Notes under the pieces: model-generated
What the model was told of the DNA's origin: nothing
What the model saw: only the letters and a program-made list of their open reading frames with translations
Databases searched by the model: none
Origin: Branchiostoma lanceolatum
Taxonomy: Eukaryota > Chordata > Leptocardii > Amphioxiformes > Branchiostomatidae
DNA length: 64,000 nucleotides
Reading direction: 5' to 3'
Assembly: GCF_035083965.1 (NCBI RefSeq)
Contig: NC_089732.1
Location: 2,772,883-2,836,882 of the forward strand
In this document: positions 1 through 64,000 of the stretch, piece after piece
How positions within the stretch are numbered: position 1 is the first letter of the stretch
Layout of the letters: every line of letters begins with the position of its first letter
Program-made: the position numbers and the translations under genes

Positions 1-167
1 TTTCTAAGAGAACATTCAGATTTGAAAACTTTCAAGATGGTGTCTGGATCTAGGTAAATATGGATTCGAAGCTGACATTCAAAACTTATATTTTGCAATG
101 GATAATTTAGCAACTAGCATCAGTTCATTCTTAATTTTGATCTTCTTGCGTCTTGACTTTCTCTCAG

Positions 168-3100
168 AGAAGCGGACGTACAACGGCCTGCCCGACTTCA
201 TGACCAGAGTGGCCCGAGAGGAGCTGGGCAAACTGGACGACAGCATCACGGAGTGTAACGTTATCTACCTACCACAGGTCAGCTTTCAAAATTCAAGATG
301 GCGCTATAGCTCAAACTGGTAGCAACCTCACAGTTGAGCTCCTGGTTCCTATTAGTTGGTAACTGGGAGTACCCTGTTTAGTGCTGGGTCAGGACATCTC
401 GATTGGGGCTGCACACGTATTTTGGAAGGAGCGTCAAAAGGGGTCTCAATTTGTTAGAGGAGATGCCTTGAGCATGTTAAAGGGGAAGGGCTAGCAACCC
501 CTCCCTGTAAAATATATATCCTGCTTCTGAAACAACAAGGAAATTGCTGCCCTATGTGACTCTAGATGAAACAAATGAATGAAGGAAGGAAGGAACGAAC
601 AAACTTTATTGCTGGATCGCTCGTGGAATTTGTGGAGAGCACTGTCAGTGATCTGTTAATTTCCCTTCAGCTGGGTTACCTGCTGGCCATCCCGTGTACA
701 TCACAGATCAAGGAGGAGGAGAACTTTCACATGCCTGGTCTGGAATTTGTGGTGAGGACATACATGTACAGACTTTAGAATACCAGAAATTCAGAAATCT
801 AAAGCTGTCACGTGCTACATGTATATCTAGCTCATATGATACATGTGTGAAATTTAAAGAAATTTGAAGCAGCGAACTCTAATATCATTGAATTTTAGTT
901 GTGTTCTATAATAAGATTTTTGAAGACTTTTTATAGTTTAATACCCAATATTTATTGCAGTTCCTGTCTAATGGCATGGTCCACTACAAAAGTGCCAGTA
1001 CAAGAGGTATGTGGATTAGGCATATGGATCATAGTTACTCTCCAATGTTTAAAATAATTGTCTCTCAACAATTCTTTTTCTTACAAAGCCATCAGGCCAC
1101 AGTCAAGATTGTTAGTAAGTCATTTGATTAGTATATTTACAATATAATTAACTAGCAAAGATAGACCTTTTTTCTCTAATTTCGAAAAAGAAAAAATAGT
1201 GAAGATTTGATTTAATTTTTTAATTATAAAACCTTTCAGAATTGGATGCTCTTCTTGGAGACACACAGTGTGAGATTACAGGTAATTTCAATGTCATACA
1301 ACACAATAAATCTACATGATTGTACAAACTGTACGGTATTTAAGTTTCAGTTACTATTAAAAGATGTGTTGTTTCAGTTTTAGAATTTGAATGGACACTG
1401 AGTTTGACTGTTGGATAGTATCTTAAAATACACTTCAAGATTCTGTTATATCTTTGTTTCTCTTTTAACCAATTCATATTAACTTTGGAATCTATTATAT
1501 ATATATAGTAATAAAAATATTCTTATACATGTGCTTTTTTTCTGTAGAAAATACATTGTACGGGACCAGCACCTGGCCTGAGCACATTATGGGATACATG
1601 ATCAAAGTGGGTAGCCTCAAACTTCACTGACATATCAATGACACTGTTGTTCCTCAGACCATGAGACCAGCATCATGCACAAACTACAGAACACCATCCT
1701 GGACCATGCTGCTGTACTGTTGGACGTTATGGAGTGTGTGGCAGAGATGGACTGGTTAGTGTTCTTCAAATACAGTCAAACAGTCAAACTTGTTGTCTGA
1801 GCAACAATTCAAGACTGTGGAAAATGGTTGCTAAGGTGGTTGCTCATTGCTTAGGACAGAGCAGGTTTGAACTTTAAACTATTTAAAAATGGACGAGGCT
1901 ATTTAAAAGTGGTACAGCCTATGCCAATTAGTTTCCTACGCCATGCGGTTGCCTGACCAAGTTTGACTGTATTAGAACTTCTTTCACCTAGTTACTACTC
2001 CAGGTGACTGTGGTATATTGTAATCATGTTAGGTTTTCGCTGTCCCAAGAATATCTCTATATAGCTTAAATTTTTTTCTGTCCTACTCCCTGTCCTGTCC
2101 CATTCACAATTAAATAAGACTACCTTTCTTATTCCCCAGCTTGATTGCATTTGCATCCGTTGCCAAGGACAACAATTATGTGCGTCCAGAGTTAACCAAG
2201 GAGAGTGGCATCAGGATTGTTGGAGGCAGGTATGTTTGAAATTTCGTATCATTATAGTAACTTTATTCGAAAGAGTACAGTAGGTGTGCTTGGCTTAACA
2301 CGTGAGCTGTCGCGAAGCCGCATTGCACTACTATCTAACAAAAAAGCTCCATTCTTCGTCCTTAGTCTGAGGTTCGACTGCTTTAGTTTTACCTACCTTT
2401 ACATTAGTGTGACAGTCTTGTATCAACCACTGGTTTCTGCATCTGCAGTTGTAGAAACGTCTTGTAGCTGCATTTAATATATCTTTATCTTCCTCCTCTT
2501 TGCCTTGCATCTCGCGAGCTCCCTTAGCTCCTGGAGTTTCTTTTCTCACCTTGTATACCTGCAGTCTTTTTTCATGTTACACTGACCCATATTTTCAGGC
2601 ACCCCCTGCAGGAGATGTGTGTTAGCCCGTTTGTTCCCAACAGCACCGCCCTGGGAGGGAGCGGCCACCGGCTCAGCGTCCTGACGGGCCCCAACGCCAG
2701 CGGCAAGAGCGTCTACCTCAAACAAGTTGGCCTGGTCGTGTTCCTGGCTCAGGTGGGCATGACTAAAACTTGAACATTTACAGGAACTATGCAAAATCAT
2801 TATTTCTCTATAGAGAGAGAGCCTCAGAGGTCGTGGTAGACCAAAGAAATCCTGGATTGAGTGTGTTAAGAAGGACATTACAGAGTGCAGCCTCACCAAC
2901 GTGGACCCGCTGGATAGAGCCGCTTGGAGGCGCTGTGTGAAGACAGCAGTATAATCTAATACTGGATAATGCTAATAGAAAACATGTTTAAGTACATAGA
3001 CAGCTTGTTTATTGTGAAGTGAGATTACTATATAACTCAGAACAAGCACACATTTTAACTAGAAATTTGTTGAAATATAGGCTCTGGCACAGTTGTCTGA

Positions 3101-6100
3101 GATGCTAGCCCACTAGAGGCTGAATTCTTGGCCTGGTAGTTTAGGCTGAGCCAGGCCCTGGAGGAATCATGGAAAATTGCAGCTTACACACCTCTTTCCT
3201 GTGATTTGGTGGCCCACCAGGGCAAAATTGTACCAGTGGTCTCTGTTCTTTTAGCCAATTTGGACCATATGGGCCAACAGGCCAGCCTGATTGTCCCAAA
3301 TTGGCAAGAGTGTTTAACTGAAACAGGTGGGTCTGTTCGTGTTCCTTGCTCAGTTGGGAAGTTTTGTGCCGGCGGAGTCTGCCACCATTGGCGTCGTGGA
3401 CAGGATCTTCACCCGGATCCACACCAGGGAGTCGGTGTCCGTGGGGCTGTCCACCTTCATGATAGACCTCAACCAGGTTAGCCTGCTCATTCATTTACTC
3501 TCACTCACTCACTCACTCACTCACTCACTCACTCACTCACTCACTCACTCACTCACTTACTCACTCACTCACTCTAGTAAGTGAAGTCTATTATATTATT
3601 TGATATCAGTTTGTCAAACATTTCATCAAGCAATGATAAAATGTAGTAACATCTTATGCTGTTTTCATTTTCAAATACCACTGTCTTTAAAGTCAAGTTG
3701 AACATGAATGGAGATACATGAAACTCAATTTTGTTGATGCTGACATACATGAAACGTTGTCCATTGCAGGTGTCTGTTGCTCTGCGCTGCACTACAGCCC
3801 AGTCTTTGGTGCTTTTTGATGAGTTCGGCAAGGGCACTGCAACTGTAAGTTGATCAAACTGACTTACACTAACTTTTTAACTGAGATCACTGTTACTGTA
3901 ACTGGCTCTATTGTAACTGCCAAAGATGTCCTTCTGACTTACAGAGAATTAAAAAATCTTGGTGTAGGTAATGGTAAATGTGTTTAATATAATAGGTTTG
4001 GTAATATAATGTGTTTGTAATTAGTATGACTACAGGAAGACTAGTGTTACATACAGTCAAACCTGTCCATAGCGGTCACGCAAGGGACCGACAAAAAGTG
4101 ACCACTATGCCCAGGTGGTCGCTATGCAAAAGTAACCGCCAAGACAGGTTTGACTGTATATACTCAATATTGGACATCTGTCCAATAAACAAGTAAAAAT
4201 GGATTGAATGTACAATGTACCTCTCTGATCTTGTAGGTAGATGGCATATCACTGATGACAGCAAGTCTGGGTCATCTGCTGTCCCGCGGTGCAGCCTGTC
4301 CCCTCACGATTGTCTCCACGCACTTCCACGGACTAGTCAAACAGAACCTGCTACCCCCTTCACACCATCTCACATATCAGGTTAGTCAAACAGAACCTGC
4401 TACCCCCTTCACACTATCTCACATATCAGGTTAGTCAAACAGAGCCTGCTGCCCCCTTCACACTATCTCACATATCAGGTTAGCAGACTATAGAACCTCA
4501 CCCTTTTTTTGTTTTTATATTATTATTATAGAGAAGAACATATTTCCAAAAGTATGATTATGAAGGTTTGAGACATCCAAGTTAACATTATTTCAAGACA
4601 ATTCAATCTCTACAACTAAAATTCGGAGGTTACCTCTGGACGTTCCAAGTGACATCCATCGCTCTTCTTCAGCGTCAGAATGAACTGGCAGAAGAGGTCA
4701 ATATTAGTTCATCTAGGTAGAAAAACGCTGATCAGTTCCAAAAGTGTTGTCTTTTTCTATACTTTTATTTACTAATAGGCCATCCTATCTAGAGACACCT
4801 CAATTCACATGGAAGACCTAAGAGGGCCATGGCAGATGGACTGGTGTGGTCGGAAGTTGTGCATGGACATCCACTATAAGCAGTTAACCTGTTATGGCTC
4901 CTATCAACATTGTTTTCATTGATATATTATTTTAAAATCTTGTCCACTTGTGATTAGCATGTTTTTTTTAATCCAGGAAACATCAAATTAAAAAAAATTG
5001 GTATCATGACTTTTGGAACCTGACTGTTCCAGATGATGGAGACGATCCAGGACGGGGAGCAGCTGGTGTTCCTGTACCAGCTGGTAGAGGGCGTTGCTGA
5101 GAGCAGCTACGCCTGCACCATCGCCGCTCAGGTTGGCCTGCCCAGTGAACTCATATCCAGGGGAGCAGAGGTGCGCAATTGACTGATCCAGAAGGACATT
5201 TTTATGCCAGGGCTCAAAATAGTGGGTGTATGTGCACCCGTGTGCACCCAAAATTGGAGCTGTGCACCTAATTTTTTACTGTGGGTGCACCAGTGCACCT
5301 AGATATTTTTGTAGGCTGTAGGATAAGGGTATTATTGTACACTAGTATATAGAATATTCTACCAGAAAAGTAATATAACCTTTTGTTGTACTATATTTAA
5401 TGTATCACTTGTTTGAAATTATAAGGTTAATCAAAGAGCGTTAAACATTGTAATTATGTTTTGCTGACATACTACTTTATTCTATGTGGTGCACCCAAAA
5501 TTCTTACTGTGCAACAAATTTTTTGGCTTGGGTGCACCAGTGCACCTATTTCCAAGAATGAATTTCGAGCCCTGTATGCAATATACAGTCTGCATCCATA
5601 GAGACTGTACTCACATGTATGGTGATTGCAATACATGTAGCTGTATGTACATGTACACAATGTAGGTGTATGTAGTCTGCAACATGGAATGCAGTTTGCA
5701 TATACCGGTAGGTGTATGCAGTCTGCACACAGTGAATGCAATATGCATATACATTAGGTGAATGCAGTCTGTTAGGTACGTTGTATTTGCATATAGCATT
5801 TACCTGTATCAGATGGAAAACACACAGACGTCACCAAATGCACAAACCTGCATTTCCCCCTGTGATATGCTGGGATGATTTGAAAGCTTTGGATGATATC
5901 TGTTAAACTTTGACTGTCCTTAATGTCCTATATGTAGGTATCAGAGTTGATCAGAACGAACCAACCTGTGCATCGTGTAGACACGGCCAGTACAGAGACT
6001 CAGTACCAGAGGTGGGTCCATTGTTCTTTCTCAGGCATTCAAGTTTTACATCAGATGATATTCATACATTGACACTTTCATTCGTTCATTCAAACCTTAA

Positions 6101-6569
6101 AGTTTCTAGTGCCTAGTGGCGCAAAGGGCAGCAAATTTCTCTGCTGTTTTAGTAGTAGGCTATATCTTTACAGGTTCCTAGCCCTTCTCCATTAACATGC
6201 TTTAGGCGACGCCTTAAAACATGAGACCCCCATTTTATGTCCCTTCTGAAAGACGGGTGCAGATCCAACCGAAATGTCCCCAAGCCAGAATTGAACCAGG
6301 GTTACAAAGTTGAACCAGGAGCTCAACTGTGATGCTACTACCAGTTTGAGCTACAGGGACACCCCTACCATACATACACAATAAGGAATATCGGTATTGT
6401 TTTTTGAGGGTAGGGAAATGATAATCTGAATATTAGGTATACTTGTCCTACGTTTCTCCTTAGGTGCTCAGAGGTTGTTGAGGAGTTCTTGACCTTGGAC
6501 TTGGAGAAGAGGGATCTTGTAGACTTCCTCAAGAAATTTGTCAGTCCGAAAAGCCAAGGAATGAGCTGA
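168..6569 (+). CDS. MSH5: MSH5, MutS homologue 5 (3' part; 5' end outside window)
   Basis: MSH5 pairs with MSH4 in a nuclear clamp that stabilises meiotic recombination intermediates. The coding exons read here are 168-277, 671-751, 961-1006, 1240-1281, 1658-1754, 2140-2229, 2599-2752, 3354-3476, 3770-3844, 4237-4380, 5033-5170, 5938-6011 and 6464-6569, and all junctions keep frame. They give about 425 residues, roughly the C-terminal half of the family's usual length of about 830. The Walker A motif TGPNASGKS is in the 2599-2752 exon. [13 protein letters not shown]-type and STFMIDLNQ motifs follow in the next exon, and the Walker B segment [11 protein letters not shown] is at 3770-3844. The protein ends SPKSQGMS. 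The first visible exon starts in phase 1, so upstream exons exist. Two of the introns and the 3' end carry exon-edge duplications. The assignment to MSH5 rather than another MutS rests on the whole C-terminal pattern and is firm. Confidence 0.95.
298..612 (+). mobile_element. tRNA-derived SINE, family A, in an MSH5 intron
   Basis: The 5' part contains a pol III A-box-like stretch (TAGCTCAAACTGGTAGCA) followed by a weak B-box (GGTTCCTATTAG). The body (GGGCTGCACACGTATTT) is shared with 56060-56240 (+) and, in reverse, with 6112-6362 and 61915-62145. A shared 3' segment reads AACAACAAGGAAATTGCTGC. Head, body and tail of one family recur at four places, which supports a dispersed SINE. Confidence 0.75.
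1772..1970. mobile_element. Short inverted-repeat element with ACAGTCAAAC ends
   Basis: The left end reads TACAGTCAAACAGTCAAAC and the right end is its imperfect complement, AAGTTTGACTGTA. A related element is at 4053-4160 and a half copy lies near 17470. It sits in an MSH5 intron. Confidence 0.55.
2832..2954 (+). mobile_element. Non-LTR retrotransposon 3' remnant (C-terminal tail of the RT protein)
   Basis: An open stretch in the MSH5 intron encodes [15 protein letters not shown], continues through a [11 protein letters not shown] motif and ends at a stop. The pattern G-R-P-x-x-x-W followed by DRAAWR is the usual extreme C-terminus of several LINE reverse-transcriptase proteins. No RT core is present, so this is a 5'-truncated remnant. 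Confidence 0.7.
3489..3578. repeat. (TCAC)n microsatellite
   Basis: About twenty tandem TCAC units, with an occasional TTAC, start just after the donor of the MSH5 exon ending at 3476. Confidence 0.95.
4053..4160. mobile_element. MITE-like element with CAGTCAAACCTGTC inverted ends
   Basis: The ends ACAGTCAAACCTGTC and GACAGGTTTGACTGT are inverted copies. The interior holds a second complementary pair around GGTCGCTATG and CATAGCGGTC, so the whole element can fold. It lies in an MSH5 intron. Confidence 0.7.
4333..4479 (+). repeat. Three 49-bp tandem copies of an exon end with its donor (MSH5)
   Basis: The unit runs from TAGTCAAACAGA to CACATATCAGG. The first copy is the true 3' end of the exon ending at 4380. 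Two further copies (4382-4430 and 4431-4479) lie in the intron, each with the same CATATCAG|GTTAG donor context. The unit is not a multiple of three, so use of a later donor would shift the frame. Confidence 0.95.
5208..5574. mobile_element. MITE with CAGGGCTC ends and TATGC target duplication
   Basis: The left end is CAGGGCTCAAAAT and the right end is ATTTCGAGCCCTG. Both are flanked by TATGC (5203-5207 and 5575-5579). The inside has two copies of a TGGGTGCACCAGTGCACCTA segment. It lies in an MSH5 intron; no coding capacity is visible. Confidence 0.75.
5575..5775. repeat. Degenerate minisatellite (TGCAGTCTGCA units)
   Basis: Loose tandem repeats of about 55 bases carry ATGCAGTCTGCA and TGCATATAC motifs, directly after the CAGGGCTC element. 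Confidence 0.6.
6112..6362 (-). mobile_element. tRNA-derived SINE, family A (reverse orientation)
   Basis: On the minus strand this shows the A-box-like TAGCTCAAACTGGTAGTAGC, a GGTTCAACTTTG/GGTTCAATTC B-box region, the shared body and the AACAGCAGAGAAATTTGCTG tail. It is the most complete copy of the family also seen at 298-612. Confidence 0.8.
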
Positions 6570-6630
6570 GCCACAACACCTGTATGTTGCACTGTTGTTA
6601 TTTTGTTTTGTTGCTCTTGGAGTTGACATG

Positions 6631-6636
6631 AATAAA
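6631..6636 (+). promoter_or_regulatory. MSH5 polyadenylation signal (AATAAA)
   Basis: An AATAAA hexamer lies about 60 bases after the MSH5 stop codon and is the likely primary polyadenylation signal. A second AATAAA at 6798-6803 lies in the duplicated copy of the same 3' end. Confidence 0.55.
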
Positions 6637-6712
6637 ATGCACTAGCTTAAAAAGCAACCTGATCACATCCAGTGACAGTCAAAGTAAAAAAAAGGTAAAG
6701 CAGCCATCTTAG

Positions 6713-6820
6713 AAACCAAGGAATGAGCTGAGTCACAACACCTGTATGTTGCACTGTTGCAATTTCGTTTTGTTGCTCTGTAAGTTGACATGAACAAAAT
6801 AAATGTACTAACTCAAAGCA
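6713..6820 (+). repeat. Duplicate of the MSH5 terminal exon 3' end
   Basis: This block repeats 6551-6650 with a 162-base offset. It carries the last few codons, the stop codon and the polyadenylation region, including its own AATAAA at 6798-6803. Identity is high but imperfect, for example gccaca against gtcaca after the stop. Confidence 0.85.
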
Positions 6821-8322: not shown

Positions 8323-11300
8323 TCATGTTCTTAAACTTTCAGTTGGTTGTGGTTCGTCCTTGTCAAATAGTCGAGTGGGGAGTTTTACCACCTCTCTCAC
8401 ACCAGATGCAATACCCCACAAGGCTGTCAGGGGGAGCTGCAGGAGCCAAGTCAAGCCACCTGCGTTGTTCTGGTCGGGGGGCGGTCGGGGACGTTTGGCC
8501 TTTTTAGCTTCTGCAAAACAAGACAAAACTTCCTTAACACATGTGGAAAGTTGTCCTAATTTGTGTGAAAAAAACATCATTGAAGAGGTTAGTACATTTT
8601 AAGTGGTGTGGCTAAAAGAACTAGAAGGAAACATTACTAACTGCATGTAAGTGTGTTACTTCAAAATCTATTTCCAAGTCAAAGGCATACACAATTTCAA
8701 AATGGATGCTGAGCGAATTAAGATTGTGTAAAGATACAATGTACTAGCTACTTGTGAGCATTCTGACACATTTACACATTCAATTAGTTTACCATTTGAC
8801 TTAGTCTTTTTAATATAGTCTTTTAGTCATTTTGAAATGAAAATACAAATGTAGTTGCATACTGGAGATAAATAAAGTAACAGGACATTATAAATAAAAC
8901 AACACAAAACTGATGTTCAACTTGGTAACCAGAAAGTCTCTTTTAAGAAAGCTTGAATGTATAAGTCTTACCCATCAAGGCATCGAGTTCCTTGCTGTAT
9001 TCGTTTTTCCCAAGGAACAAGGAGACCAGTTCACGTAGCTTCTCAGCATCTGGCATCTCAAACATAAACTCTCCACCATCCTCCGTTTGGACCATCACAT
9101 AAACCCCTCCTCTGTAAGGTGCAAGTAAACATGGTGACCCGTCATGTTGACATTAACTGACATATGGTTCAGAGGGTTCTCACTGTGATTTTTTCACAGC
9201 ATAGGGGTCTGACTGAGGTACAGAAGGCCAACTTTGCGCGGCGCTTTAGAGGTTTACCGAAGACATGACCACAGTAGGGTGTCCAGCATCCTCCCCCCAG
9301 ATAGTTTTGAAATTCAGAACCCCCTGAGACACTATTTCTTGCATTTTTGGGGACAAACTTTATGACTTTAATTCTAATGATAAAGCCAAATATCATTCCG
9401 GCGGAGTTATTTTTTTATACGAATGTTGTAAAATATAAGAGGATGCACCTTTCGCAGACGGCCTTGTTGATATGACGGAATTCCAGCTCCAGTAGCAGCT
9501 GCTACTTCCCGTTCTCATTACATTATGATTCAATTTTGGTAGACATTCATAAAAGGCTTCATACTTGATAATCATGCCCCGAAATTTGAGTTGTGCACTA
9601 AAGAACTTTTTTATCACCCTTGTACCAGGACTGTCTCCAGATTTGATTTTGTTCTGTCTCACTCAATGTTTAGGAACCCATGTTGTTAGTTTCCGTTGTT
9701 TAATCTGTTATTTCAAGCTTACAAAGGACATTTTCTTAAATTTCATGACAATGGGACGGGTCCAGGAGACAGCCCTGCCTTGTTCTGTACGTGAAAACAC
9801 GCACCTTTCGCAGACGGCCTTGTTGATGTGGCGGAACTCGAGCTCCAGTAGCAGCTGCTGCTTCCCGTTCTCGGCGCGCGCCTCCTTCAGCAGGAACAGG
9901 CCGCGCCAGTTCACCGCCACAATCAGGTTGTGCAGCTTCACGTCCTCACCGTCAGGCCCCGGCCCGCAGAACTTCTCTGGAGAACAAGAAGAGACATTTA
10001 AGGAAATACTGAAAATGCAGAAATGTTTGCGGCGGTTTTATGTTCACGGTTTTCGCGGTAAGCACTTCGCTGCAAACTTAAAACCACCGCAAAATATTTT
10101 TGCCCACCTACTCTCTTGTCTACTATTGTCTCAAATGCGAACTTAAAACTACTGCAAACACTTCATTTTCTCCCTACCGGAAAATTAAAACAACGCTTAC
10201 TTAAATGCATTTACAGTAGTACCCCTGGGATGACAATGAAGTACTGTAGATCTTGAATTGTTCGCGGCAGCTGTATTTTTGCATCGCTTTTACAGTGTAC
10301 ACCGTGAAATTTTGACACCTTGAAAATGTGTTTCGTGCTACAGCATAATTTCAACGGCAAACTTAAAACACACTGTTGAACTTCTTTTCCACTCCTAGAG
10401 TGTTTAGTACTGCAAATATCAAATCTCAGCAAAAATGAATGATTTTCCTAGATTTACAGTATACATTGTACCATTGCCTGCTATTTCTGACCTTTGCCCA
10501 GTGCCTTATACTGTACTCATTCAAGCATCCATTTGGAAAATGCAAAATTCACCACAGGATTTGGTATACGTCTTGCTAGTACTAGTACTAGTATAGAAAA
10601 GAAACCTTGATGATAAGGTAGACCTTGGCTTACCTGCAACAAAGAACCTGGAGAAGAGAAACGGCCATTCCACCATCGCCTGACGCACAACCTCCGCCTT
10701 TGCCTTGTCGACTGTCATCTCAGGGTCTTCTCCTAGGAACTGTAACAATAATCATAATATCATGATTACGTATCAAGAGTCGACCATACGTGTTTGCACA
10801 TGGAAGTGTACTATGCAACCAAATAAACTCTATGACTACAAACAGCCCCAAAGCATCTCTGAATGCCTATAGTAATCAAAAATCAACTTGCCTCTGATTT
10901 TTAGTCTAGTCTTATTAGTAGTGACATATAGATATACTGTATTTATACATGTATATGATTGTGTGATGTTTATATAAAATTGATTTTGCATATTTCAGTT
11001 GATCTCAACACTCAATGTTGAGCTATATGAAGGGTAAGGGGATTTATTCAGTCAGATGTGGAAAAGTTGGGTGTAACAGGGCCGTTCAGTGTAATATAAC
11101 CAGCTGCCGCTGCCACGCCGCATGCCTGCCAAGCTGGTGTGTTACTAATCTCCAAGCAGATCCACACCGGGCGCGAAAATCGTATATGCTAGCCAGAGAA
11201 GGTCCAGTCAGCCAGAGAGGGTTCATCATCTCTGGCTGACTGGACCTTCTCTGGCTAGCATATACGATTTTCGCGCCCGGTGTGGATCTGCTTGGAGATT

Positions 11301-30535: not shown

Positions 30536-30936
30536 CAAAATTATTATGCATGTTCATCTCAACATTTGTTTTTCTTGGAACGTGTATCCGATTGGCCCAA
30601 CGATGTACATTACGTCATTTTACTTATGTAAAGGTAATGCAGGTTTTGCATTTGTTCATGAGTCTTAGAATTAGTCTGGTGCTTCTATAAAGCAACGAAT
30701 ACTCAAGCGGGCAGTTATTTTCATTGAGGACAGCTAGGACTAAACATCTTGACTGTCTACAAGAGGGAAAAGTGGCTGAAGGTACTGTGAATCCATGTAA
30801 TATTATATATTGCGGTTGGAAATTTTAGCGGTGGGGGGAAGGGGGTAATTTACTGCACTTAATCTTAACTGTGGGAACAAACATTACCGTTTCAAATATT
30901 AGTGATCAAATATTTGCGATAATGAAATTTTAGCGG

Positions 30937-49440: not shown

Positions 49441-49444
49441 ACTT

Positions 49445-51235: not shown

Positions 51236-54200
51236 ATGATGAACAGCAGAAAACGTCTCAAGACCGAAGAGGTAAATAATGAATTTTTATTGTGGAAGTT
51301 ATTATGGTAATTTGGACTTACCATTTTTATCTAATAACAATGTCCATAAGTTACGTTCCATTTACTTATCACACAATGCGTTTTCCGTACGCGTTTGATC
51401 TCGTCGTTTTCGCATGCATGTCGAAGGCTTTTCAAGAATGTATTGAACACCCGGATATCTGAGGTGAGGGGATTACTGATGTTGCATTAGTATATCACTT
51501 TAGATCAACTGTTTTAATACGGTGTTACGCTAGGGTCACATTTCCAAGTCGGGGCCCGACCGGGCTGTTTGAGAAAACAAAGAACAAAGGATGCATATGA
51601 AGAATATACATAACGTATGGAAATGAATGACTTGTGTGTTTCGTTGTCTTTTATATCATAGTTTTTGTTCCAACAAGCTGTCCGGCAGGGCCCCGGGTTT
51701 GAATTGTGACCCAAGTATTACCCGGTGGGGGGGGGGGGGTTACGTTTAGGACACGTTCTAGTTGACTAGCGAATACTCGTACCTCAAATTTAATTTTTTC
51801 CTTCACTCAAGAGTTACTCTGACTGTCATGTTCCACTGCAGGAGCTGCCTCTGACAGTGACGACCGATAACGATTATGGCGCTTCTACGGTGAGTTATTG
51901 TGCGAAGTATTGCATTTTTTGGATACAGCACTGATTCCACAGTTGTTTCAAATGTTGTGAGGAGTATATAGAAGACAGCACTCACCAAGGTGCGTACGGA
52001 TGAATATATATGACTCCATATAAATTGTGTTCGTAGCTTTGTTTATATAGTGCGCTAACTTACCACCCGAATGCCGCCCAGTTATTCTACTTAAATCTGG
52101 CAAAGGACCACATCCGTCACAAGAAATGTCATAACATGTCCTGTTTGTCCATCTGCAGAAGCTGAGGGCCTTTGTAAGCCGGTACCGTGACAGTGGGGTG
52201 GTGGACGGGTCATTCGGGGAACTCAGGTTCCGTGGCTACGGGCAGGCGTCACCGGTATGTTGCAAATTGGTCATTTCGGATGGTGACGTAAAGCCGGCGG
52301 CCCCGTGTATGAGGGAGCTTCAGGCATAAGCTTAAGCCTCAAGCCTCAAACCTCTGCACATAAAAGAACCCAACACACTTATCGAGAAGAGTAGGGGTGA
52401 CCCGGTGTGCTTGGCCAAAAACGCAAGCCGTGACGAAGCCGTATTGCACTGCCACTAGCTACTTGAAAAAGCATCATGCTTTACCTCAATTGAGGATGAC
52501 TGTTTTTTCTTACCTACTTTTAAGCTCTAAGTCAGTACTTGCACATACGCAGACCAAACAAGTGGCTTTAATTAAGAAACAGATATAACTAATGGGTTTT
52601 GTGTAACTCATACTTAAAAAGAAATTGTCACAACGTTTTTCTTTCTTTTCCAGTACGTGCGAGTGACAAATGACATTGACCCTGAGGTCCTGTGGGAGTT
52701 GATGACGTCATGCTGGGACATGAAGCCCCCGAACCTGATTATCTCCGTGGTCGGCGGAGACGCCAAGTTCGTCTTGAAGGAGCGGCTTAAGAAAGTCAAC
52801 AAGGGGCTGGCCAATGCAGCTCTTAGCACTGGTAGGTGGGCCATAACAATACGCCGCGCTTGATATAATGATATGATGTTGACTTAGCTTGTCTTGTCAT
52901 CTGCTGTTAACCTGAGTTATATGTTACGTTGTAATTATTAGTTTCTTTTGTTATCTCTGACCGTCATCGGTATTTTCTGTATTTTATGAGCAGAAGCCCA
53001 TCATAAGCAGATATGCTTCTTGTCCAATGCTCATTAAATGTTATGTGAATAAAATAAAATAAAATGAAATAAAATATATAACCTCCATTAACATTAACCC
53101 GCCGGGTTACATAAATCCTTACCAGCTGCAACGTCATGTTAATGCTTCAAGTAATGCGATTGCACATACGCTTGCAAATTGTCTCATTTATTATACATTT
53201 GTGTTTCCGTGACCTCCCTCTCGAACTGGACCTCTTGGTAGAGCGGCCAAGGCCGACAGGGTATTTTCCAGTTAAAATAAAGGTTATTGATTGATTGATT
53301 GATTGATTGGTTGGTTGGTTGGTTGGTTGGTTGGTTGGTTGGTTGGTTGGTTGGTTGGTGAATAGAGATGACCCTTGGTTTGGCCCTGTCAGGAGCGTGG
53401 GTCTTCACCACTGGCTTACACCGCGGCGTGTCCAAGTACGTGGGAGAAGCGATCTGGGGAGGGGCGAACTGCCTGGCTGACTCCGGGCAGCCCGCCGTCA
53501 ACGTGGTGGGCATCACCACCTGGGGCAACGTGCCCAACAGGCACAGGCTGAAGGGGCAGAAGGTGAGTTTTTCTTCTTGTTAACGAGTTTGCCCTGTGCA
53601 AAGCCACATGGACCACTTCTGGACACTGAACTAATAACGCGCACTGAAGCAACATCTCTTCGCCCTAAGTCAGAATCATCAAGCTCAGGCAATCTCGACT
53701 GACTCAGCAGGCCTCAGTTTGGCAACGTGGTCGGCATCACTACCTGGGGCAACGTGCCCAACAGGCACAGGCTTAAAGGACAGAAGGTGAGTTTTTCTTC
53801 TTGTTAACGAGTTTGCCCTGTGCAAGGTCATGGACCACTTCTGGGCACTGAACTAACGCTCGTTGAAGCAACATCTCTTGCTCAGGCAAGCTCTACTGAC
53901 TCGGCAGGCCTCAGTTTGGCAACGTGGTCGGCATCACCACCTGGGGCAACGTGCCCAACAGGCACAGGCTGAAGGGGCAGAAGGTGAGTTTTTCTTCTTG
54001 TTAACGAGTTTGCCCTGTGCAAAGCCACATGGACCACTTCTGGACACTGAACTAATAACGCGCACTGAAGCAACATCTCTTCGCCCTAAGTCAGAATCAT
54101 CAAGCTCAGGCAATCTCGACTGACTCAGCAGGCCTCAGTTTGGCAACGTGGTCGGCATCACTACCTGGGGCAACGTGCCCAACAGGCACAGGCTTAAAGG

Positions 54201-57200
54201 ACAGAAGGTGAGTTTTTCTTCTTGTTAACGAGTTTGCCCTGTGCAAGGTCATGGACCACTTCTGGGCACTGAACTAACGCTCGTTGAAGCAACATCTCTT
54301 GCTCAGGCAAGCTCTACTGACTCGGCAGGCCTCAGTTTGGCAACGTGGTCGGCATCACCACCTGGGGCAACGTGCCCAACAGGCACAGGCTGAAGGGACA
54401 GAAGGTGATTCTTTTTTCTTGTTAACGGGTTAGCTCAGTGCAAGTCCACATGGACCACTTCTGGGCACTGAAATAATATTGGCCCTGAAGCAACATCTCT
54501 TCGCCCTAAGTCAGAAACATCCAGCTCAATCATGCATTAGCCTAGCCCGACTGACTGAGCAGGCCGCAGTTTGGCAACGTGATGGGGATGACCACCTGGG
54601 GCAACGTGCCCAACAGGCACAGACTAAAGGGACAGAAGGTGATTCTGTAAGACAGAACAGTTTATAAGCAGTCTACATATGAACGGAGCTCTTCATAAGT
54701 TTACCTTCCCAATAGCTTTGGTCCAACCAATATAGACACCTGAAAAAGGTTGGCAAGATAGTCATCGTAGGGAAGGATGTGGTTTAAAACATACGTCTCG
54801 GATAGGAGATAGATAAAACATAAAACGACTGCGTTTATCATTGGGGGAGCGCTGATTTGCAATTTTAAACAAATTAAAGGCTACGGGGTTCTCTAATGCC
54901 GGGAAGATCGTTGGCCCCGGCATTTTGAGAACAAGTTGAAAAAATTGCAGTTTAGCGCTCCCTAAAAAACAAACGCCGCCCGCACCAAGAAGGTCTGCGA
55001 AAGATGCTATTAATTTTCGGTGCCTCTTTTCAGGGGATCGGGAAGTTTCCCGCGAGGTACCGACTGCAGAACGAGACTGCCCCTCTGGACCTGAACCACA
55101 CACACTTCATCCTGGTGGACGACGGGACCGTGGAGACTGCCGGCTGGTCCGACGTTGAGGTGCGGACACGGTTGGAGCAGCACATCGGCCAGCAGACCAT
55201 AGGACAGGGCGCTAAAGGTGCTATACGGTGTGGTGGTAGGTCGTTGTATGATTTTAATGTCACTTTTAAGCAGACTGTGACAACCAACCGCAACAAAAAG
55301 CAGTTGACGCAGGCTATTGATGCTATTCGTTTCGGTGTGATTTTGATGTCGTAGACTTTTCAAGCAGTCTGCAAAGAGAACCGACCACCAACAATGATCT
55401 AAGACAGGATTTCCGTAACGACTGACTACTGTCCGACATACGTATGACCGTCCCAAGAATAACTTCAGTTTACAATCGTACGACGATCCGGATACGTACG
55501 ACCAATGACAATGTGACTTGGCCCATAGGTTGCATTTACCTTGGGCAAGATTATCTCAAGAATGACATTTCTGAAATGTTCCAGAATCGATATATCTCGA
55601 TGCTAGAGTTGTTCCCTATCCTTTGGCATTGCTTACTAGATTTACAGTTTACTAAATGGGGTGGGTGTCTTATCAATTTGCTCATTTCGTTCGATGAAAT
55701 TACGATAGTTGTTCCGGATTCGGCAACATACTAGCCAAGCTCTGCCAACTCTTTACCCTCTTCGCTCGGGACACAAAGAATAAAGGCTCTGGTGCGAGCC
55801 TAATGGTATATATTTCTTTATCAAATGCAGGCCGGACGATTCCCGTGGTGCTGATGCTGATAGAAGGCGGCTCCACCACTTTAAAGAGCACCAAGAAAGC
55901 CTTAAAGAAAGGAATTCCTGTCGTCATCTTGGACGGAAGTGGGGGCGCGGCGGACGTCATCGCTTTGGCTGCTCGGAAGAAAATAAAGAAGTGCGAATCT
56001 ATTACGAATTAGTCTAATTTTGCCTTAGCAGTGTTCGTTTATCAAGCACACACATCGCTTGTTCCCATAGCTCTAATGTTAGCAGCTTCATGATAGAGCT
56101 GCTGGTTCCTACAAGTTGCTAACTGGGATAGCCCTGTTCAATGCTCGGTCAGGACATTGTGGTTGGGGCTGCACACGTATTTCGGAAGGGCCGTAGAATA
56201 TATGCGGGTCCCGTTTTTGAGGAGGTGCCTTGAGAACATCAAAGGGGAACAACTTTCAGATTTTGACTTGCGGAGCTGGAGTTAGCAGCGTTTTGGGATC
56301 TAATGGAGATTTGATTGAATGAATCATTCTACTTTCCTTCATTTATGATTTTTCTCAGTGAGCACTTGAAGCTTGAGGACGTCGACGAGAAACAGGATTC
56401 CGCCCTGCCAGATAAATGTATCCAAGACGCTTTTGGATCTGATGATGATTTGATTTAATGAATTATTAAACTTTCCTTCCTTGATGATTTTCCCCAGTGA
56501 GCTCTTGAAGCTGGAGGACGTCGAGGAGAAACTGAGGTCAGCCCTGGACCTGAAGTGGGAAGGTGCACACGTCCCTCCTTACGTCATCAGCCTCATGAGA
56601 CATCTTAACAGCATCCTGAAGGAGGAGAACAGGAACCTGGTGAGACATCTTCAGAAGGTCGTACTCTAATCTCTAAGATGTCTTGTGATAAGCAACCCTA
56701 CTCTTCAGTCAGAGGTGGGATGGAAAAATTGTGACATTCTGATGTGTCCTGTTTCCTAACAGTCCAAGCCATCTAGCTCTGGAGCTCCCGGCCCTAGTGG
56801 TCAGATCTTGGGGTCCAGTTAGAAACGGTCACGATTTTGTCCCTAAACGTTTGTTTGAAGATTATAATGACAATGTATCTGTCCATGAAGACCATTGGGG
56901 CTCACTCGACATGTATGCGTCTGAATATGACTGCAAGCGATGGCTATTGTCAACATAGCCCTCCACTGAGTCACGATCGATTGTACCTTTTTCATTCATT
57001 GAACTTGTACTTGATGCCCCTATAGAGTTTTGTCCTATTACGACCATCAGGACAATCGCTATACATTAAACAAAAGTGGATGTGAACATGTATTTTTGAA
57101 AAATGTTCTAATCATCAACATCCGGATCCACCCAGGTGACAGTTGTCCGTCTCAATGAGTCTGACGCCATGGACATTGACGAGGGTTTGCTGCGGGCACT

Positions 57201-60200: not shown

Positions 60201-63200
60201 TTTCATTTGATCCACTCACACCGGGAAGTACCCTCTCTTATCTTGTGGTGGGTTCTTTTACATGCTTGAGGTGTGGCTCCCCTCAAACACAGGCACTGCA
60301 TTTACCGTTCTATCCGAGGAATGTCCCTAACCTAAGCTAGGTACTCATTTTTAGTCGAGTGAGGAAATAGGTGACTGAGGAAATAGATGTAAAGTGCCTT
60401 TTCAGGGCACAACATCAGGGCCTGTCAGAGATTCGAACTCAGTACCTCCAGGTTCTGCGTCAACAACCCTGACCACAAGGCCTCAGTGCCACCGTAATAT
60501 ATATCATATCATATGTATACATTAGGGTGTTGCCCAACGGGTTATGCTCTTACCCTGTGATACAAGCAGGTAAAATTAACGAAGATTTCCCCCAAATTCG
60601 TGACTATCCTATGTTTTCTTCGCATCAGCCACGGCGCTTACAGCCAGCAAGATGCTGAAAGAACTGTCTTCTCTGTCCAAGGCTGAGGGACAACTGGACG
60701 AGCACAAGCACCATGAGAGTCTCGCTGAGTAAGTTGTGTATTCATTAGTTCAGACGAGCAGTAGCTAGTTGAATTACTTCTGTGTACATGGCGGTGTCTG
60801 TGTTTGGCTGTGTGTGTCTGTTTGTGTTTTAGCATAGGCCGACCAGCATAACTGAAGTAGCTATGGATGGCTTATCATAATATTTTGTATGTTGGTAGGA
60901 CTTGGGTGGGGAGGTAAAGGTAAAGTATAGGCCTGGTGGCGTTTCTTGGTATTGCAGTGGCAAATTTTGCTCTCGTATCTTTAATCCTGGACATGCTTAC
61001 AGTCTTGACTTTTTGTGGCAGATAGCTTGAGATGTAAGGAAAAAGCAGTATAGGTTTGTGAGTTGAATTAATTGAAAATCCCAATTTTCCTGGTATGAAA
61101 ACTGTAGCTGGAGACGGACGCCACTGGTTTTCGTTTTCGTACCCTTTGTCCTGGACATGTTTACGGTCGTGATATTTATCTGGCAGATAGCTTGAGATGT
61201 CAGAAAAAAAGTGGTGTAGGTTTGTAGCCTGGAATCCAAACCTATTATAGCTCCCGAGTGTCCTCCCGAGTCCCGAATACTTGCGGAGACTCGGGAGCTA
61301 TAAAAGGTTTGGATTCCAGGCTAGTAGATTTTTGAGTTGATTTAATTGAAAATCCCAATTTTCTGGTGTGAAAACTGCAGTCAGCTGGAGAAGGACGCCG
61401 CTGGAGTGATGGACGAGTGTTACCGGCTGGACCCTCGGCGGACCCTCGGGCTCCTGACGCGGCCGCAGCCCCGCTGGGGAGAGGGCTCCTGCATGGCTAT
61501 CGCCAACTCCGGCAAGCACATGGCGTTCATGAGCCACGCCGCCTGCCAGACCAACCTCAACAGGGTGTGGTTCGGCCACATGGAGTGGTTCACTCCGCTC
61601 TGGAAGGTGGGACTCCACGCTTCAACTTTCTTTGACACTTTTACTGGACCATCGGCTGGTTCAAAACAGAAAATTTACCATGAATATAGTATCTTTTCAT
61701 GACAAAGGAGTAACAAAACAGCCGACGTTTCGATGACCGTCTGTCACCTTTTTCAGAGCAATAATGGCTGGTTCACTTTGCACTGCAGCTAGGTGGCAAT
61801 GCTTTCAATGCAGTCCCAAACGTTAAGTATTGTCGCATTCATGGATATCAGAAAGTGGGCCCCATCATTTATTCGTCCGCTCGTTCAGACCCTTGCAGTA
61901 CCTAGTACCTTGTAGACCGTAGTGGCACATAGGGTAGCCAGTTTTCTTGCTGTTTCAGTATCAGGATATATTTCTACAAGGACGGGTTGCTAACCCTCCC
62001 TCTTTGACGTGCTCGAGGCACGTCCTCGAACACGGAACCCCCATTTTACGTCCCTTATACGAAAGACGCATGCAGACCCGACCGAGATGTCCTGACCCAG
62101 GATTGAACCGGGGTTTCCCAGTGAAAAACTAATTTGAACCACACACAGTTTTTACCCGGCAAGCCATTTTTGCATCCGTTAAGTTTTCAGCTTACATGTT
62201 AGAAAGGTTTTCTAGCTAGAATTTACACTTTTTCCTTTTCCGTCAGGTAATCCTTTCACTGATCTTTTTTCCCGTCACTGTCTTCACCATCACCTTCACC
62301 GATGACGTCAGAAGGACCGTTCGGACGGTCGGCTGTTCTCCCGCGCATGCGCACTCTTGTGGTATCAGGAGGTATCTCCGAGCCATATACCACTACCAGA
62401 CCGCACCTATTACCAAGTTCTACTACACCGTGGTACGTACGAACTACCCGGAGTCCTTAAGTGAGCGCGATTGCCTAAGTTATCGGAATCAACATCATCT
62501 TCATCTTTCGTCCGGATTTACTGAACCTGTGAGTCCAGTGTCTCTAGGAATCAACATGAGCGTTCATACCTCACGATTCATTGTACATAAAGATGCATTG
62601 AAGTTGTACATTTGGTCAGTGTGATATATTGAATATTCGTACAATTTAGATTGTTGTGTTTGGGTAATGGTTAGGTTGTTTGGACCCAAACTAATTAGAA
62701 TCACCTGACTTGCCATCGATGTCCTCACTCTATCCGGATGCTAACTTACCGTTTTGACTTTTTGTTAAACAGATGTTCTACGTCGTGTTCCTGATGCTCT
62801 TTAGCCTGTTTCTGCTGACCGACCTCCTGAATGACATCATCAGCCCTTCGGAATGGTTCCTGGCAGCGGTGATGGGTGTGCAGCTACTGGACGAGATCAG
62901 ACAGGTGATTGTCATTGAAGTTCATCTCTGTTGGTATGTAACATCATGGAACAGATTTTACTGGTTTTCCTCAGGATGTTCAATGAAGGTTGATGGGCCA
63001 ATCAGAGCTTTTGGGGCAAACTTGTTTCTCTCCTTAATTCCCCTCGATGAATACTACATTGACTCTGTTATAGCCTTAGCTAGCCTGGGTGCCATCCGAT
63101 TACTAATAATCACTACCCTGAAAAGATGGCAACCAGGCTAGCTGGTGTTTGGACGCAATTTAAGATTGATCTGGACTAGAATCAAATTCCAAATGTAGCT

Positions 63201-64000
63201 GAAGGTAGATAAATCTATAATAAAATAATATAATAAAAATCAAACCGCTCCTTTTCCATTCCTTACAGATCGTGTCCCAGGACGCGCGCAGCTGGTTACG
63301 AAAGCTTCAGGTCTGGCAGAGCGACGTTTGGAACCGCATGGACGCCGCCATCTTGGTCACCTTCTTCCTGGCCTTCGGCCTGCACTGCGGGCTGGGGGGC
63401 GGCGGCATGGCGGCCGTGAAGGTGGTGTACTCCTGCGCGCTCATCCTGGCGTTTTACCGCCCGCTGCAGATGTTCTACGTCCACGAGAAAATAGGACCGA
63501 AGATCATCATGATCCGAGAAATGGTAAGGGGTAGATTTGAGTACCGTACATTGAGCCAACATTCATACATTTTGAAAATGGTCTGAGTTGTTCTGTCAGC
63601 GATTAGCGTCTTTGTATTGCAGTGGGATAATATTTCCCTTCGATGCAAGTACCTTAAGTGGGAAGGATAAAGAAGTCCCTCCAAAACACATCCCAAGATA
63701 CGCTGACAGCATGCTTGCTTAAAAAAGCCTTCATGTTTGTAGACAAATACATGTATGCTTTCCTACACGCCTTAACCGTCATAACACTAGTAACGCGCCA
63801 TTTTCCTACCGTCTACTAACTCCTCCATTGTGTCCTCCAGCTTCAGGACCTCTTGATCTTCCTGAGTTTGATGGTTGTGTTCGTCCTGGCGTTCGGAGTC
63901 GTGCGGCTGGCGCTACTCTCACCAAACAGCCCGCTGAGCTGGAAGCTGTTTGTGGACGTGGTTCGGGTTCCCTACTGGCTCATGTACGCGCAGCTGCTGA
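51236..64000 (+). CDS. TRPM-family cation channel (N-terminal part; runs off window)
   Basis: Nineteen exons are visible: 51236-51271, 51842-51889, 52159-52254, 52654-52831, 53393-53562, 55034-55235, 55831-55990, 56498-56639, 57136-57208, 57685-57794, 58177-58311, 58846-59015, 59637-59809, 60629-60728, 61381-61606, 62247-62432, 62773-62904, 63269-63523 and 63841 onward. They give about 917 residues in one frame. The TRPM homology region shows [59 protein letters not shown] and [17 protein letters not shown]. Ankyrin-like segments follow ([23 protein letters not shown]). Membrane segments begin at [17 protein letters not shown] and reach [20 protein letters not shown] (S4-S5 linker and S5). 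The pore lies beyond the window. The start Met-Met at 51236 has an in-frame stop just upstream. Subfamily is uncertain, perhaps TRPM2/8-like. The exon boundaries at 55235, 55990 and 58846 are the least sure. Confidence 0.9.
52250..52455 (+). mobile_element. SINE-like element, family C
   Basis: AAAGAACCCAACACACTTAT and GTGCTTGGCCAAAAACGC match the copies at 26912-27016 and, reversed, 14310-14455 and 59846-60030. Its start overlaps the donor of the TRPM exon ending at 52254 or lies just after it. Confidence 0.65.
53288..53360. repeat. (TTGA)n(TTGG)n microsatellite
   Basis: TTGA then TTGG tetranucleotides lie about 30 bases upstream of the TRPM exon acceptor at 53392. Confidence 0.95.
53496..54650 (+). 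repeat. Higher-order tandem array of a TRPM exon 3' half
   Basis: After the true exon (ending 53562), five copies of its last part start at 53718, 53915, 54139, 54336 and 54570. Each has an upstream CTCAG or CGCAG, then TTTGGCAACGTG, then the codons for [16 protein letters not shown], then a GTGA donor. Spacing is 197, 224, 197 and 234, so the real period is a two-copy block of 421 bases. Each mini-exon is 69 bases, in phase 0 at both ends. Confidence 0.95.
54838..54975. mobile_element. Imperfect hairpin element
   Basis: GGGGGAGCGCTGATTTGCAA and TTGCAGTTTAGCGCTCCC are inverted, and GGTTCTCTAATGCCGGG pairs with CCCCGGCATTTTGAGAA at the centre. The centre resembles that of the hairpin at 39165-39506. 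Confidence 0.7.
56060..56250 (+). mobile_element. tRNA-derived SINE, family A
   Basis: CCATAGCTCTAATGTTAGCA is the A-box region and GGGGCTGCACACGTATTTCG is the shared body. Same family as 298-612. It lies in a TRPM intron. Confidence 0.75.
56320..56410 (+). repeat. Intronic copy of an exon 5' edge (TRPM)
   Basis: TTTTTCTCAG|TGAGCACTTGAAGCTTG (junction at 56360) repeats TTTCCCCAG|TGAGCTCTTGAAGCTGG at 56497/56498 about 150 bases later, with matching upstream intron. The copy keeps an acceptor but diverges after about 60 exon bases. Confidence 0.88.
59090..59233. mobile_element. MITE with 9-bp target duplication (copy 3)
   Basis: The ends TAGTCTCCAACCAGACC and GATCTGCTTGGAGATTA are imperfect inverted copies. 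The flanks repeat GGTATTGGG at 59081-59089 and 59234-59242. Inside, AAAGACCGTATC pairs with GATACGGTCTTT. It lies in a TRPM intron. Confidence 0.9.
59660..59715 (+). repeat. Coding (GAT)n repeat, poly-Asp in TRPM
   Basis: GATGATGAT with a few GAC and AAT codons encodes an acidic run ([16 protein letters not shown]) inside the exon at 59637-59809. Confidence 0.92.
59846..60200 (-). mobile_element. SINE-like element, family C (reverse) and adjoining repeat
   Basis: TTGGCCAAGCACACTGGGTC and, further on, ACGTCACCATCCGAAATGAC match reversed blocks at 52250-52455. The 60100-60180 part holds CACACCAGGTTTG, as in the family B tail. Confidence 0.6.
60205..60495 (-). mobile_element. SINE, family B (reverse orientation)
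   Basis: GATCCACTCACACCGGGAAG, GTGGTGGGTTCTTTTACATG and AGATTCGAACTCAGTACC follow the same order as 47128-47400. The last block is the reversed B-box. Confidence 0.75.
60985..61130 (+). repeat. Upstream copy of an exon 5' edge (TRPM)
   Basis: AATCCCAATTTTCCTGGTAT, GAAAACTGTAG and CTGGAGACGGACGCCACTGG repeat the acceptor region and start of the exon at 61381, where the text is GAAAACTGCAGTCAGCTGGAG. The preceding intron (GGCAGATAGCTTGAGATGT) is duplicated too. Confidence 0.85.
61225..61323. mobile_element. Hairpin MITE with TAGCCTGG ends
   Basis: TAGCCTGGAATCCAAACCT and AGGTTTGGATTCCAGGCTA are inverted, and the interior is nearly palindromic (CTCCCGAGT). Flanks GTAGGTTTG and GTAGATTTT share 7 of 9 bases. 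It interrupts the duplicated intron block of the TRPM gene. Confidence 0.88.
61721..61756 (-). ncRNA. Hammerhead-like segment of a dispersed element (candidate)
   Basis: On the minus strand: CTGAAAA, GGTGAC, a loop, GTCATC, GAAACGTCGGC. Stem II can form, and GAAACGTC is typical of Penelope-like element ends. The first core box deviates (CTGAAAA for CTGANGA). Confidence 0.4.
61915..62145 (-). mobile_element. tRNA-derived SINE, family A (reverse orientation)
   Basis: Reversed tail (TTCTTGCTGTTTCAGTATCA), body and B-box side (GGATTGAACCGGGGTT) match 6112-6362. It lies in a TRPM intron. Confidence 0.75.
63081..63140. mobile_element. Small inverted element with TAGCCTGG ends
   Basis: TAGCCTGGGTGCCATC and GATGGCAACCAGGCTA are inverted with a short A+T-rich centre. 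No target duplication is visible. Confidence 0.75.

What the first reader, a model, noticed from the sequence alone, without database searches (positions are those of the whole stretch)
1..64000. Recurrent duplication of exon edges with their splice sites across the whole window
At least fourteen exon borders have been copied into neighbouring introns or 3' flanks. Cases (true edge, then copy): MSH5 4333-4381 to 4382-4479; MSH5 3' end 6551 to 6713; MyTH4-FERM 9801 to 9445, 14629 to 14479, 15343 to 15467, 15871 to 16104 and beyond, 17930 to 18068; FAXDC2 24297 to 24361-24930 and 26692 to 26489-26640; DOHH 40850 to 40978; C9orf72 48727 to 48886-49440; TRPM 53496 to 53718-54640, 56466 to 56320, 61340 to 61050. 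Each copy holds a short piece of exon and most keep a splice dinucleotide. The number seems too high for chance tandem slippage and suggests a process focused on exon-intron borders. I recall that minisatellites crossing exon-intron borders were reported at an amphioxus Adh gene under the name 'mirages'; that memory needs checking, and the genome-wide extent may be undescribed.
Basis: partly seen in the sequence, partly recalled or inferred. Interest (0 to 1): 0.88.

Follow-up and report, generated by a model that had tools for sequence, protein, structure and literature searches.

The report
Copied exon edges in animal genes
Short stretches spanning the ends of coding exons have been copied into the neighbouring introns again and again in this animal DNA, a habit known from lancelets, and here some copies look as if they were once kept as protein-coding sequence and one may have made a new intron.

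Summary
I found one more, in MSH5. The kind is in print: amphioxus 'mirages'. The species here is not established.

Local direct duplications are common (126 alignments against 0 in five shuffles) and rarely inverted (3 pairs after masking). Within six genes 11 of 18 families cross a splice border, 3.9 expected (P 2e-4; 0.014 with a twofold detection advantage). One window, tested post hoc.

Two results go further. Donor-side copies differ from their exons mostly at silent sites (22 silent, 6 replacement), acceptor-side copies do not (4.2, 14.8). They were probably coding for part of their history, or silent polymorphism misleads; so retention may explain some of the excess. The TRPM array holds five in-frame 69-nt units with AG, CTGAC and GT. 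One MSH5 intron is flanked by a 56-bp repeat in splice register, alone among 47 introns: a candidate intron gain.

The parts
2702..2757 (+). MSH5 exon 2599-2752: last 51 nt plus 5 nt of intron, upstream member of the intron-flanking repeat
   Evidence: 82% over 56 bp to 3303-3358; donor D2752
3303..3358 (+). Downstream member of the MSH5 intron-flanking repeat; ends the intron and gives 5 nt of the next exon (A3354); in-frame TAA
   Evidence: in register with the donor: 47 of 65 positions identical against control mean 17.6, maximum 28; 7 silent and 2 replacement differences, one of the latter nonsense
2826..2966 (+). Spacer of that intron: frame [42 protein letters not shown] then a stop, resembles the C-terminal end of a non-LTR reverse transcriptase (recalled motif)
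   Evidence: no significant Pfam match
4334..4483 (+). MSH5 donor D4380 border, 49-bp unit x3, GT kept in both copies
6551..6800 (+). MSH5 coding end and 3' flank duplicated (6551-6638 to 6713-6800); not a splice border
9801..9872 (-). MyTH4-FERM donor D9805 border (source)
9445..9516 (-). Copy of the D9805 border, GT kept, nonsense CAG to TAG
   Evidence: 93%
14615..14665 (-). MyTH4-FERM donor D14631 border (source)
14465..14515 (-). Copy of the D14631 border, donor score 5.9 against 5.0 in the source; the gene finder chose it as an exon
15341..15565 (-). MyTH4-FERM acceptor A15383 border (15341-15452) and copy (15467-15565), AG lost in the copy
15868..16755 (-). Array of units just upstream of exon 15781-158xx; acceptor uncertain (15850-15968)
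24282..24961 (-). FAXDC2 acceptor A24306 border, 39-bp unit, 14 copies, AG kept in 11
26686..26771 (-). FAXDC2 donor D26714 border (source)
26463..26646 (-). Two copies of the D26714 border (26561-26646 with GT kept; 26463-26533 with GC)
40851..41046 (-). DOHH acceptor A40868 border (40851-40910) and weak copy (40979-41046), AG kept
48620..49439 (+). C9orf72 last-exon coding end and three copies in the 3' flank; copy 49142-49278 keeps the protein except one T to V and a TGA stop; not a splice border
53499..53566 (+). TRPM donor D53562 border (source)
53718..53786 (+). TRPM 69-nt in-frame unit with AG, CTGAC and GT (B1)
53915..53983 (+). TRPM 69-nt unit (A2)
54139..54207 (+). TRPM 69-nt unit (B3)
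54336..54404 (+). TRPM 69-nt unit (c4)
54570..54638 (+). TRPM 69-nt unit (c5, two residues changed)
56289..56546 (+). TRPM acceptor A56498 border (56428-56546) and upstream copy (56289-56407), AG kept
60965..61404 (+). TRPM acceptor A61381 border: tandem duplication of about 164 bp; a 99-bp foldback element (61226-61324) lies inside the second copy

Best explanation
These are mirages: short local direct duplications, units of about 33 to 224 bp, that happen throughout this stretch and sometimes span an exon-intron border. Inferred origin: repair of staggered breaks or unequal exchange, both of which give direct rather than inverted copies. Such a copy is tolerated because the outermost intact edge still makes the normal mRNA (the upstream donor, or the downstream acceptor), leaving the extra edge inside the intron. 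Later insertions (a foldback element, perhaps a retrotransposon piece) separate the copies. Shown: the duplications, their direct orientation, their border excess in this window, their place on the intron side. Supported statistically, with rivals open: donor-side copies spent part of their history as coding sequence. Inferred: that units move between exon and intron positions by unequal exchange, and that some are recruited as exons (the TRPM 69-nt units) or define a new intron (MSH5 2753-3353).
For: 126 local direct alignments against 0 in five shuffles; 26 families after masking, 19 in six genes. 3 inverted pairs within 1 kb after the same masking, none touching an exon. 11 of 18 families cross a splice border, 3.9 expected. 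No family lies wholly inside an exon, 2.1 expected, which alone is not significant (P 0.11). Similar divergence across classes. A foldback element inside one copy of the 164-bp TRPM duplication shows one way in which spacers arise. Donor copies 22 silent, 6 replacement. TRPM units: no gap in the 63-nt exon part in any comparison, and in 6 of 6 comparisons among units it is better kept than the part downstream; all five units keep AG, CTGAC and GT with an open frame. Mirages with the same anatomy are in print for amphioxus; small tandem duplications from break repair are shown in mouse and human cells (passages).
Against: The species is not established. Of 17 non-array pairs examined 16 are not adjacent (spacers 14 to 545 bp), and 12 of those 16 spacers resemble neither flank, so plain head-to-tail duplication is not shown for them. 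Break repair and unequal exchange were not tested against each other. Coding use of donor copies is contradicted by in-frame stops in the MSH5, MyTH4-FERM D9805 and C9orf72 copies, so those are not translated now. The TRPM acceptors are weak (-1.7 to -3.3), and the exon part of the TRPM units is not better kept than the upstream part in 2 of 6 comparisons (A2-c4 and, nearly equal, B1-c5). The donor/acceptor split was made after seeing the data.
Confidence: 0.72

Rival explanations
1. Plain tandem slippage and minisatellite growth with no preference for borders; the excess is detection bias, because exon sequence is conserved and losing the exon side is lethal.
For: Duplications of the same kind occur in introns and outside the six genes. 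With a twofold advantage the excess drops to P 0.014, or 0.045 without the uncertain family; the first rotation gave 0.043 and 0.035. Acceptor-side crossing alone is weak (P 0.03 to 0.11). Splice dinucleotides decay at about the neutral rate.
Against: The intron parts of crossing pairs are no more diverged than intron-only or outside pairs (13.3, 14.8 and 12.4%). 16 of 17 non-array pairs are not adjacent, though two of these belong to one head-to-tail event. Silent excess in donor copies.
Confidence: 0.3
2. A mutational process aimed at exon-intron borders, for example breaks linked to splicing or transcription, copies border DNA into the intron.
For: 11 of 18 families cross, 3.9 expected. Similarity ends 4 to 5 nt past the donor in three of six donor families.
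Against: The same places are where constraint ends, so the sharp ends may be erosion of the intron part. Silent-site evidence allows retention to explain the excess. Duplications away from borders have similar divergence and form.
Confidence: 0.15
3. Assembly artefact: pieces of the other haplotype were joined beside the exon edges in a very heterozygous genome.
For: Donor-side differences are mostly silent, as between alleles. PMC3087553 reports a mirage that appears aberrantly assembled in the B. floridae draft.
Against: Edges, not whole exons, are repeated. Three donor-side or 3'-end copies carry in-frame stops. Acceptor-side copies are not allele-like (4.2 silent, 14.8 replacement). Arrays such as the 14-copy FAXDC2 one are not haplotype pairs. 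For one amphioxus case resequencing argued strongly against assembly error (PGBD5).
Confidence: 0.1
4. The silent excess is ancestral polymorphism: the exon recombined with other haplotypes after the copy was made, adding silent differences only.
For: A very diverse species would give this; the copies are close enough for recombination to separate them from the exon (reasoning, not tested).
Against: Silent difference is 0.285 in donor copies and 0.39 in the C9orf72 copy against 0.025 and 0.03 replacement (from the counts), more than the heterozygosity of about 4% that I recall for amphioxus would add.
Confidence: 0.35

Closest known systems
Amphioxus mirages (globin BflGb6 and BflGb9, Adh3, PGBD5, troponin C)
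   Same: Repeats spanning an exon-intron border, either edge, copies in the intron, AG/GT often kept, unit 10 to 160 bp, normal exon still intact
   Different: Here 12 families in five of six genes in 64 kb; most non-array copies separated by unlike DNA; donor-side copies show excess silent divergence; species not established
Intron gain by tandem duplication of an AGGT exonic segment (Rogers model; ATP2A1; potato RdRp case, PMC4974935)
   Same: MSH5 intron ends lie at the two members of a direct repeat, CAG|GT at the donor member and CAG| at the acceptor member; splicing keeps the contiguous protein
   Different: 545 bp of unlike DNA sits between the members; no outgroup without the intron could be examined
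Daphnia new introns with direct repeats from staggered breaks (PMC4202315)
   Different: Daphnia exon-end repeats are 4 to 12 bp, here 56 bp; the Daphnia introns are known to vary between populations
Tandem alternative exons
   Same: TRPM 69-nt units: in frame, AG and GT, exon part without gaps and mostly better kept than flanks
   Different: Weak acceptors, no transcript evidence; inclusion would add a repeat of 23 residues

Membership tests
Amphioxus mirage | Repeat unit spans an exon-intron border | tested here: met
   12 families at score 20 or more, one with an uncertain acceptor
Amphioxus mirage | Minisatellite-like tandem arrangement | tested here: inconclusive
   Tandem arrays at MSH5 4334, FAXDC2 24282 and TRPM 53499, head-to-tail at TRPM 60965; the other pairs examined are spaced by 14 to 545 bp
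Amphioxus mirage | Genuine exon left intact and normal splicing unaffected | tested here: inconclusive
   Source exons align to homologues for TRPM, C9orf72, DOHH, MyTH4-FERM and MutS; splicing itself needs RNA
Amphioxus mirage | Length instability between haplotypes or somatically | not testable with these tools
   one haplotype only
Amphioxus mirage | Cephalochordate host | not testable with these tools
   no genome held; no Rfam match or tRNA in the window
Intron gain by border or exon duplication (MSH5 2753-3353) | Direct repeat in register with both splice sites | tested here: met
   47 of 65 identical; the other 46 introns at most 24, mismatched pairs at most 28
Intron gain by border or exon duplication (MSH5 2753-3353) | Intron absent in outgroups or other haplotypes | not testable with these tools
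   no eukaryote genome to compare; bacterial MutS aligns without a gap across the site but is intronless anyway
Tandem alternative exons (TRPM units) | Own acceptor, branch motif and donor with open frame | tested here: met
   five of five units, acceptors weak
Tandem alternative exons (TRPM units) | Inclusion in transcripts | not testable with these tools
   no RNA data

The most novel reading that the evidence does not exclude
Mirages are not dead decoys but a working reservoir of coding exon ends. Donor-side copies cycle between exon and intron positions by unequal exchange and are kept as protein-coding sequence; some become exons (the five TRPM 69-nt units) and a border copy can create an intron (MSH5 2753-3353). 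Border duplication would then be a steady engine of exon and intron birth in this lineage, acting at about one splice junction in eight.
Probability: 0.22. Interest if true: 0.82.

Novelty: new variant of a known kind. Interest (0 to 1): 0.58.

Why it matters
How introns and new exons arise is a long-standing question with few caught cases. If about one splice junction in eight carries a copied edge, as in this window (12 families, 98 junctions), this genome would offer many events at different ages to compare within one species. The silent-site result makes a direct test possible: whether copied exon edges are junk or are used. It also warns gene finders, since mine took some intronic copies for exons.

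Tried and rejected
Rejected: copying in either orientation, as templated insertion would allow, since only 3 inverted pairs (score 22 or more, within 1 kb) were left after masking, none at an exon; before masking there were 35 at score 24 or more within 2 kb. Rejected: one 601-bp tandem unit for the MSH5 intron, because only 56 bp match while the rest does not. Not supported: selection to keep the AG/GT of copies, 23 of 30 kept against about 23 to 26 expected. Gene conversion between exon and copy as cause of the silent excess: by my reasoning it cannot raise the silent to replacement ratio above 2; not simulated. Branch point idea for FAXDC2: a CTGAC lies 26 nt before the true acceptor and is absent from most copies, but CTRAY motifs also occur at 24955, 24919, 24852 and 24821, so nothing firm. 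Rfam and tRNA scans gave nothing. Pfam gave no significant match to the reverse-transcriptase-like fragment. The first gene-finder runs missed or misplaced several exons and took intronic copies for exons; the final exon list was set by hand from homology and splice scores, partly with human homologue sequences recalled from memory (MSH5, myosin VIIa, FAXDC2, C9orf72), which come from no call.

Rows dropped before counts: 13 low-complexity intervals masked by hand and pairs more than 1000 bp apart; the two TRPM families 60965 and 61051 merged as one event; unit lengths of families set by hand. The divergence comparison used 9 of the 12 crossing families (the TRPM D53562, FAXDC2 A24306 and MyTH4-FERM 15868 arrays left out), all 5 intron-only families at score 24, and 6 pairs from 5 of 7 families outside the territories. 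The silent/replacement totals left out the FAXDC2 acceptor array and the MyTH4-FERM 15868 array; FAXDC2 array copies differ at 7, 13 and 18 sites of codon positions 1, 2 and 3, not independent. The spacer test used 17 pairs chosen by hand, arrays not included; 4 of 16 spacers did resemble a flank (22535, 26561 marginally, 40851, 61051). A first rotation test that let either copy hold a junction gave P 0.043 at score 24 and 0.035 at score 20.
Full report
Setting. The window is animal DNA (inference from gene content) with no genome held. Homology gives six genes: a MutS homologue taken as MSH5 (+), a myosin VII-like MyTH4-FERM gene (-), a fatty-acid hydroxylase taken as FAXDC2 (-), DOHH (-), C9orf72 (+) and a TRPM channel (+). 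A small gene finder plus hand curation gave 98 splice junctions, 47 donors and 51 acceptors, in 37.6 kb of gene territory. One acceptor (15850-15968) stayed uncertain, and several splice sites have weak scores.

The observation. Self-alignment found 126 local direct alignments at score 24 or more within 2 kb, simple repeats included, against 0 in each of five block shuffles; inverted ones numbered 35. After masking simple repeats and limiting distance to 1 kb, 26 direct families remained at score 24 against 3 inverted pairs at score 22, none touching an exon. The 14 claims were re-aligned one by one: 11 cross a splice border (one uncertain), two cross only a coding end (MSH5, C9orf72), one fails.

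Is it focused on borders? In the six territories 19 families at score 24 become 18 after merging one split event; 11 cross a border, 5 are intron-only, 2 are at coding ends. Expected crossing from uniform placement 3.6, or 3.9 when placements wholly inside exons are excluded (P 2e-4). In 20000 rotations of the junction map none reached 11. With a twofold detection advantage for crossing copies 6.2 are expected, P 0.014; without the uncertain family P 0.045. At the looser cut it is 12 of 21, P 1e-4 and, with the advantage, 0.011. An earlier rotation that let either copy count gave P 0.043 and 0.035. Donor families 6 against 1.89, acceptor families 5 (or 4) against 1.89. No family lies wholly in an exon, 2.1 expected, P 0.11. 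So there is an excess, in one window, tested after it was noticed.

Age. Intron parts of crossing pairs differ at 39 of 294 sites (13.3%, 9 of 12 families), intron-only pairs at 40 of 270 (14.8%), pairs outside the gene territories at 72 of 579 (12.4%). By this measure crossing pairs are not older, which speaks against simple longer survival. The silent sites below say otherwise for donor-side copies; the two measures disagree, perhaps because alignments stop where the intron part has eroded.

Copies are not all junk. Exon-derived parts were compared codon by codon, one copy per family. If the copy was free of constraint from birth, silent difference should be at most twice replacement difference. 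Seen: 38 silent of 135 sites, 25 replacement of 456; 15 silent expected (P 4e-7). Donor-side copies (6 families) give 22 silent to 6 replacement (P 3e-5; 15 to 4 without the MSH5 pair, P 5e-4; 10 to 4 without MSH5 and TRPM, P 0.015), the C9orf72 3' copy 11.8 to 3.2, acceptor-side copies (4 families) 4.2 to 14.8 (donor against acceptor P 2e-4). Against this, the MSH5, MyTH4-FERM D9805 and C9orf72 copies carry in-frame stops, so they are not coding now. I read this as copies that were coding for part of their history, or as exons that carried old silent polymorphism; I cannot separate the two. If donor-side copies do stay recognisable longer, that weakens the border-focus reading.

TRPM array. 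Five units downstream of exon 53393-53562 repeat its last 63 nt. In six comparisons among the distinct units the exon part differs at 4, 1, 3, 7, 6 and 8 of 63 sites and has no gap. It is better kept than the 90 nt downstream in all six (6/85, 14/89, 15/85, 46/82, 39/83, 45/79; only slightly so in the first), and better than the 70 nt upstream in four; in A2-c4 the upstream part is identical (0/70), and in B1-c5 the two are about equal (8/59). Every unit starts after an AG, with CTGAC 19 nt upstream, ends at a GT and is 69 nt, open and in frame; acceptor scores are weak (-1.7 to -3.3). Among the four distinct units 7 of 10 changes are silent (counted by hand, P 0.0035). They are candidate cassette exons.

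MSH5 intron 2753-3353. Donor and acceptor surroundings agree at 47 of 65 positions in splice register; 2162 mismatched donor-acceptor pairs average 17.6 and reach 28; none of the other 46 introns exceeds 24. The downstream copy plus the next exon reads as the uninterrupted protein apart from one stop and one replacement. The spacer holds a reading frame like the end of a retrotransposon reverse transcriptase (recalled motif; no Pfam support). The likeliest story is an insertion bounded by a duplicated CAG|GT segment that is now spliced out as an intron. Whether other animals share the intron is unknown.

Mechanism. Direct orientation, units of 33 to 224 bp and unlike spacers (12 of 16) fit break repair with duplication of the overhang, as shown for small tandem duplications in mouse and human cells (PMC8355091, passages) and inferred for new Daphnia introns (PMC4202315, passages), followed by insertions such as the 99-bp foldback at 61226-61324 inside the second copy of the TRPM 164-bp duplication. 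Unequal exchange between copies would also fit. Neither is shown here.

Prior work. PMC3087553 (passages) names mirages, gives units of 10 to 160 bp, haplotypes with 6 and 3 units, and proposes intron gain from them. PMC3902484 (passages) adds PGBD5 and cites troponin C. The Adh3 paper itself was not held; I know it only through these. PMC4974935 (passages) and PMC10809524 (abstract and outline) cover intron gain by duplication and dual-use AGGT sites. PMC9860276 was seen in a listing only. In the listings, which show only titles and starts of abstracts of the best-ranked papers, I saw no genome-wide count of mirages and no silent-site test of their copies.

Noticed in passing
61226-61324: A 99-bp foldback element (self-complementary, 83%) lies inside one copy of a TRPM intron duplication; a related stretch is at 45121-45213.
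   Followed up: partly
26017-26324: Foldback-rich spacer between two 33-bp direct repeats in a FAXDC2 intron, with a further weak match at 23915-23985.
   Followed up: no
14516-14614: A stretch of about 40 bp in this spacer recurs at 521-558, 6127-6158 and 61925-61964, perhaps a dispersed element.
   Followed up: no
30934-31632: Two open frames of 112 and 119 codons that look like a retrotransposon end (recalled resemblance), without a Pfam match when joined.
   Followed up: no
34977-37269: Probable gene with an EGF-like domain, a PAN domain and a C-type lectin domain (Pfam).
   Followed up: no
34262-34987: A 21-bp periodic array (34401-34821) that stays open in two frames on one strand and one on the other.
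   Followed up: no
48620-49439: C9orf72 last-exon coding end with three copies in the 3' flank; the copy at 49142 keeps 43 of 45 residues but has a TGA within.
   Followed up: yes
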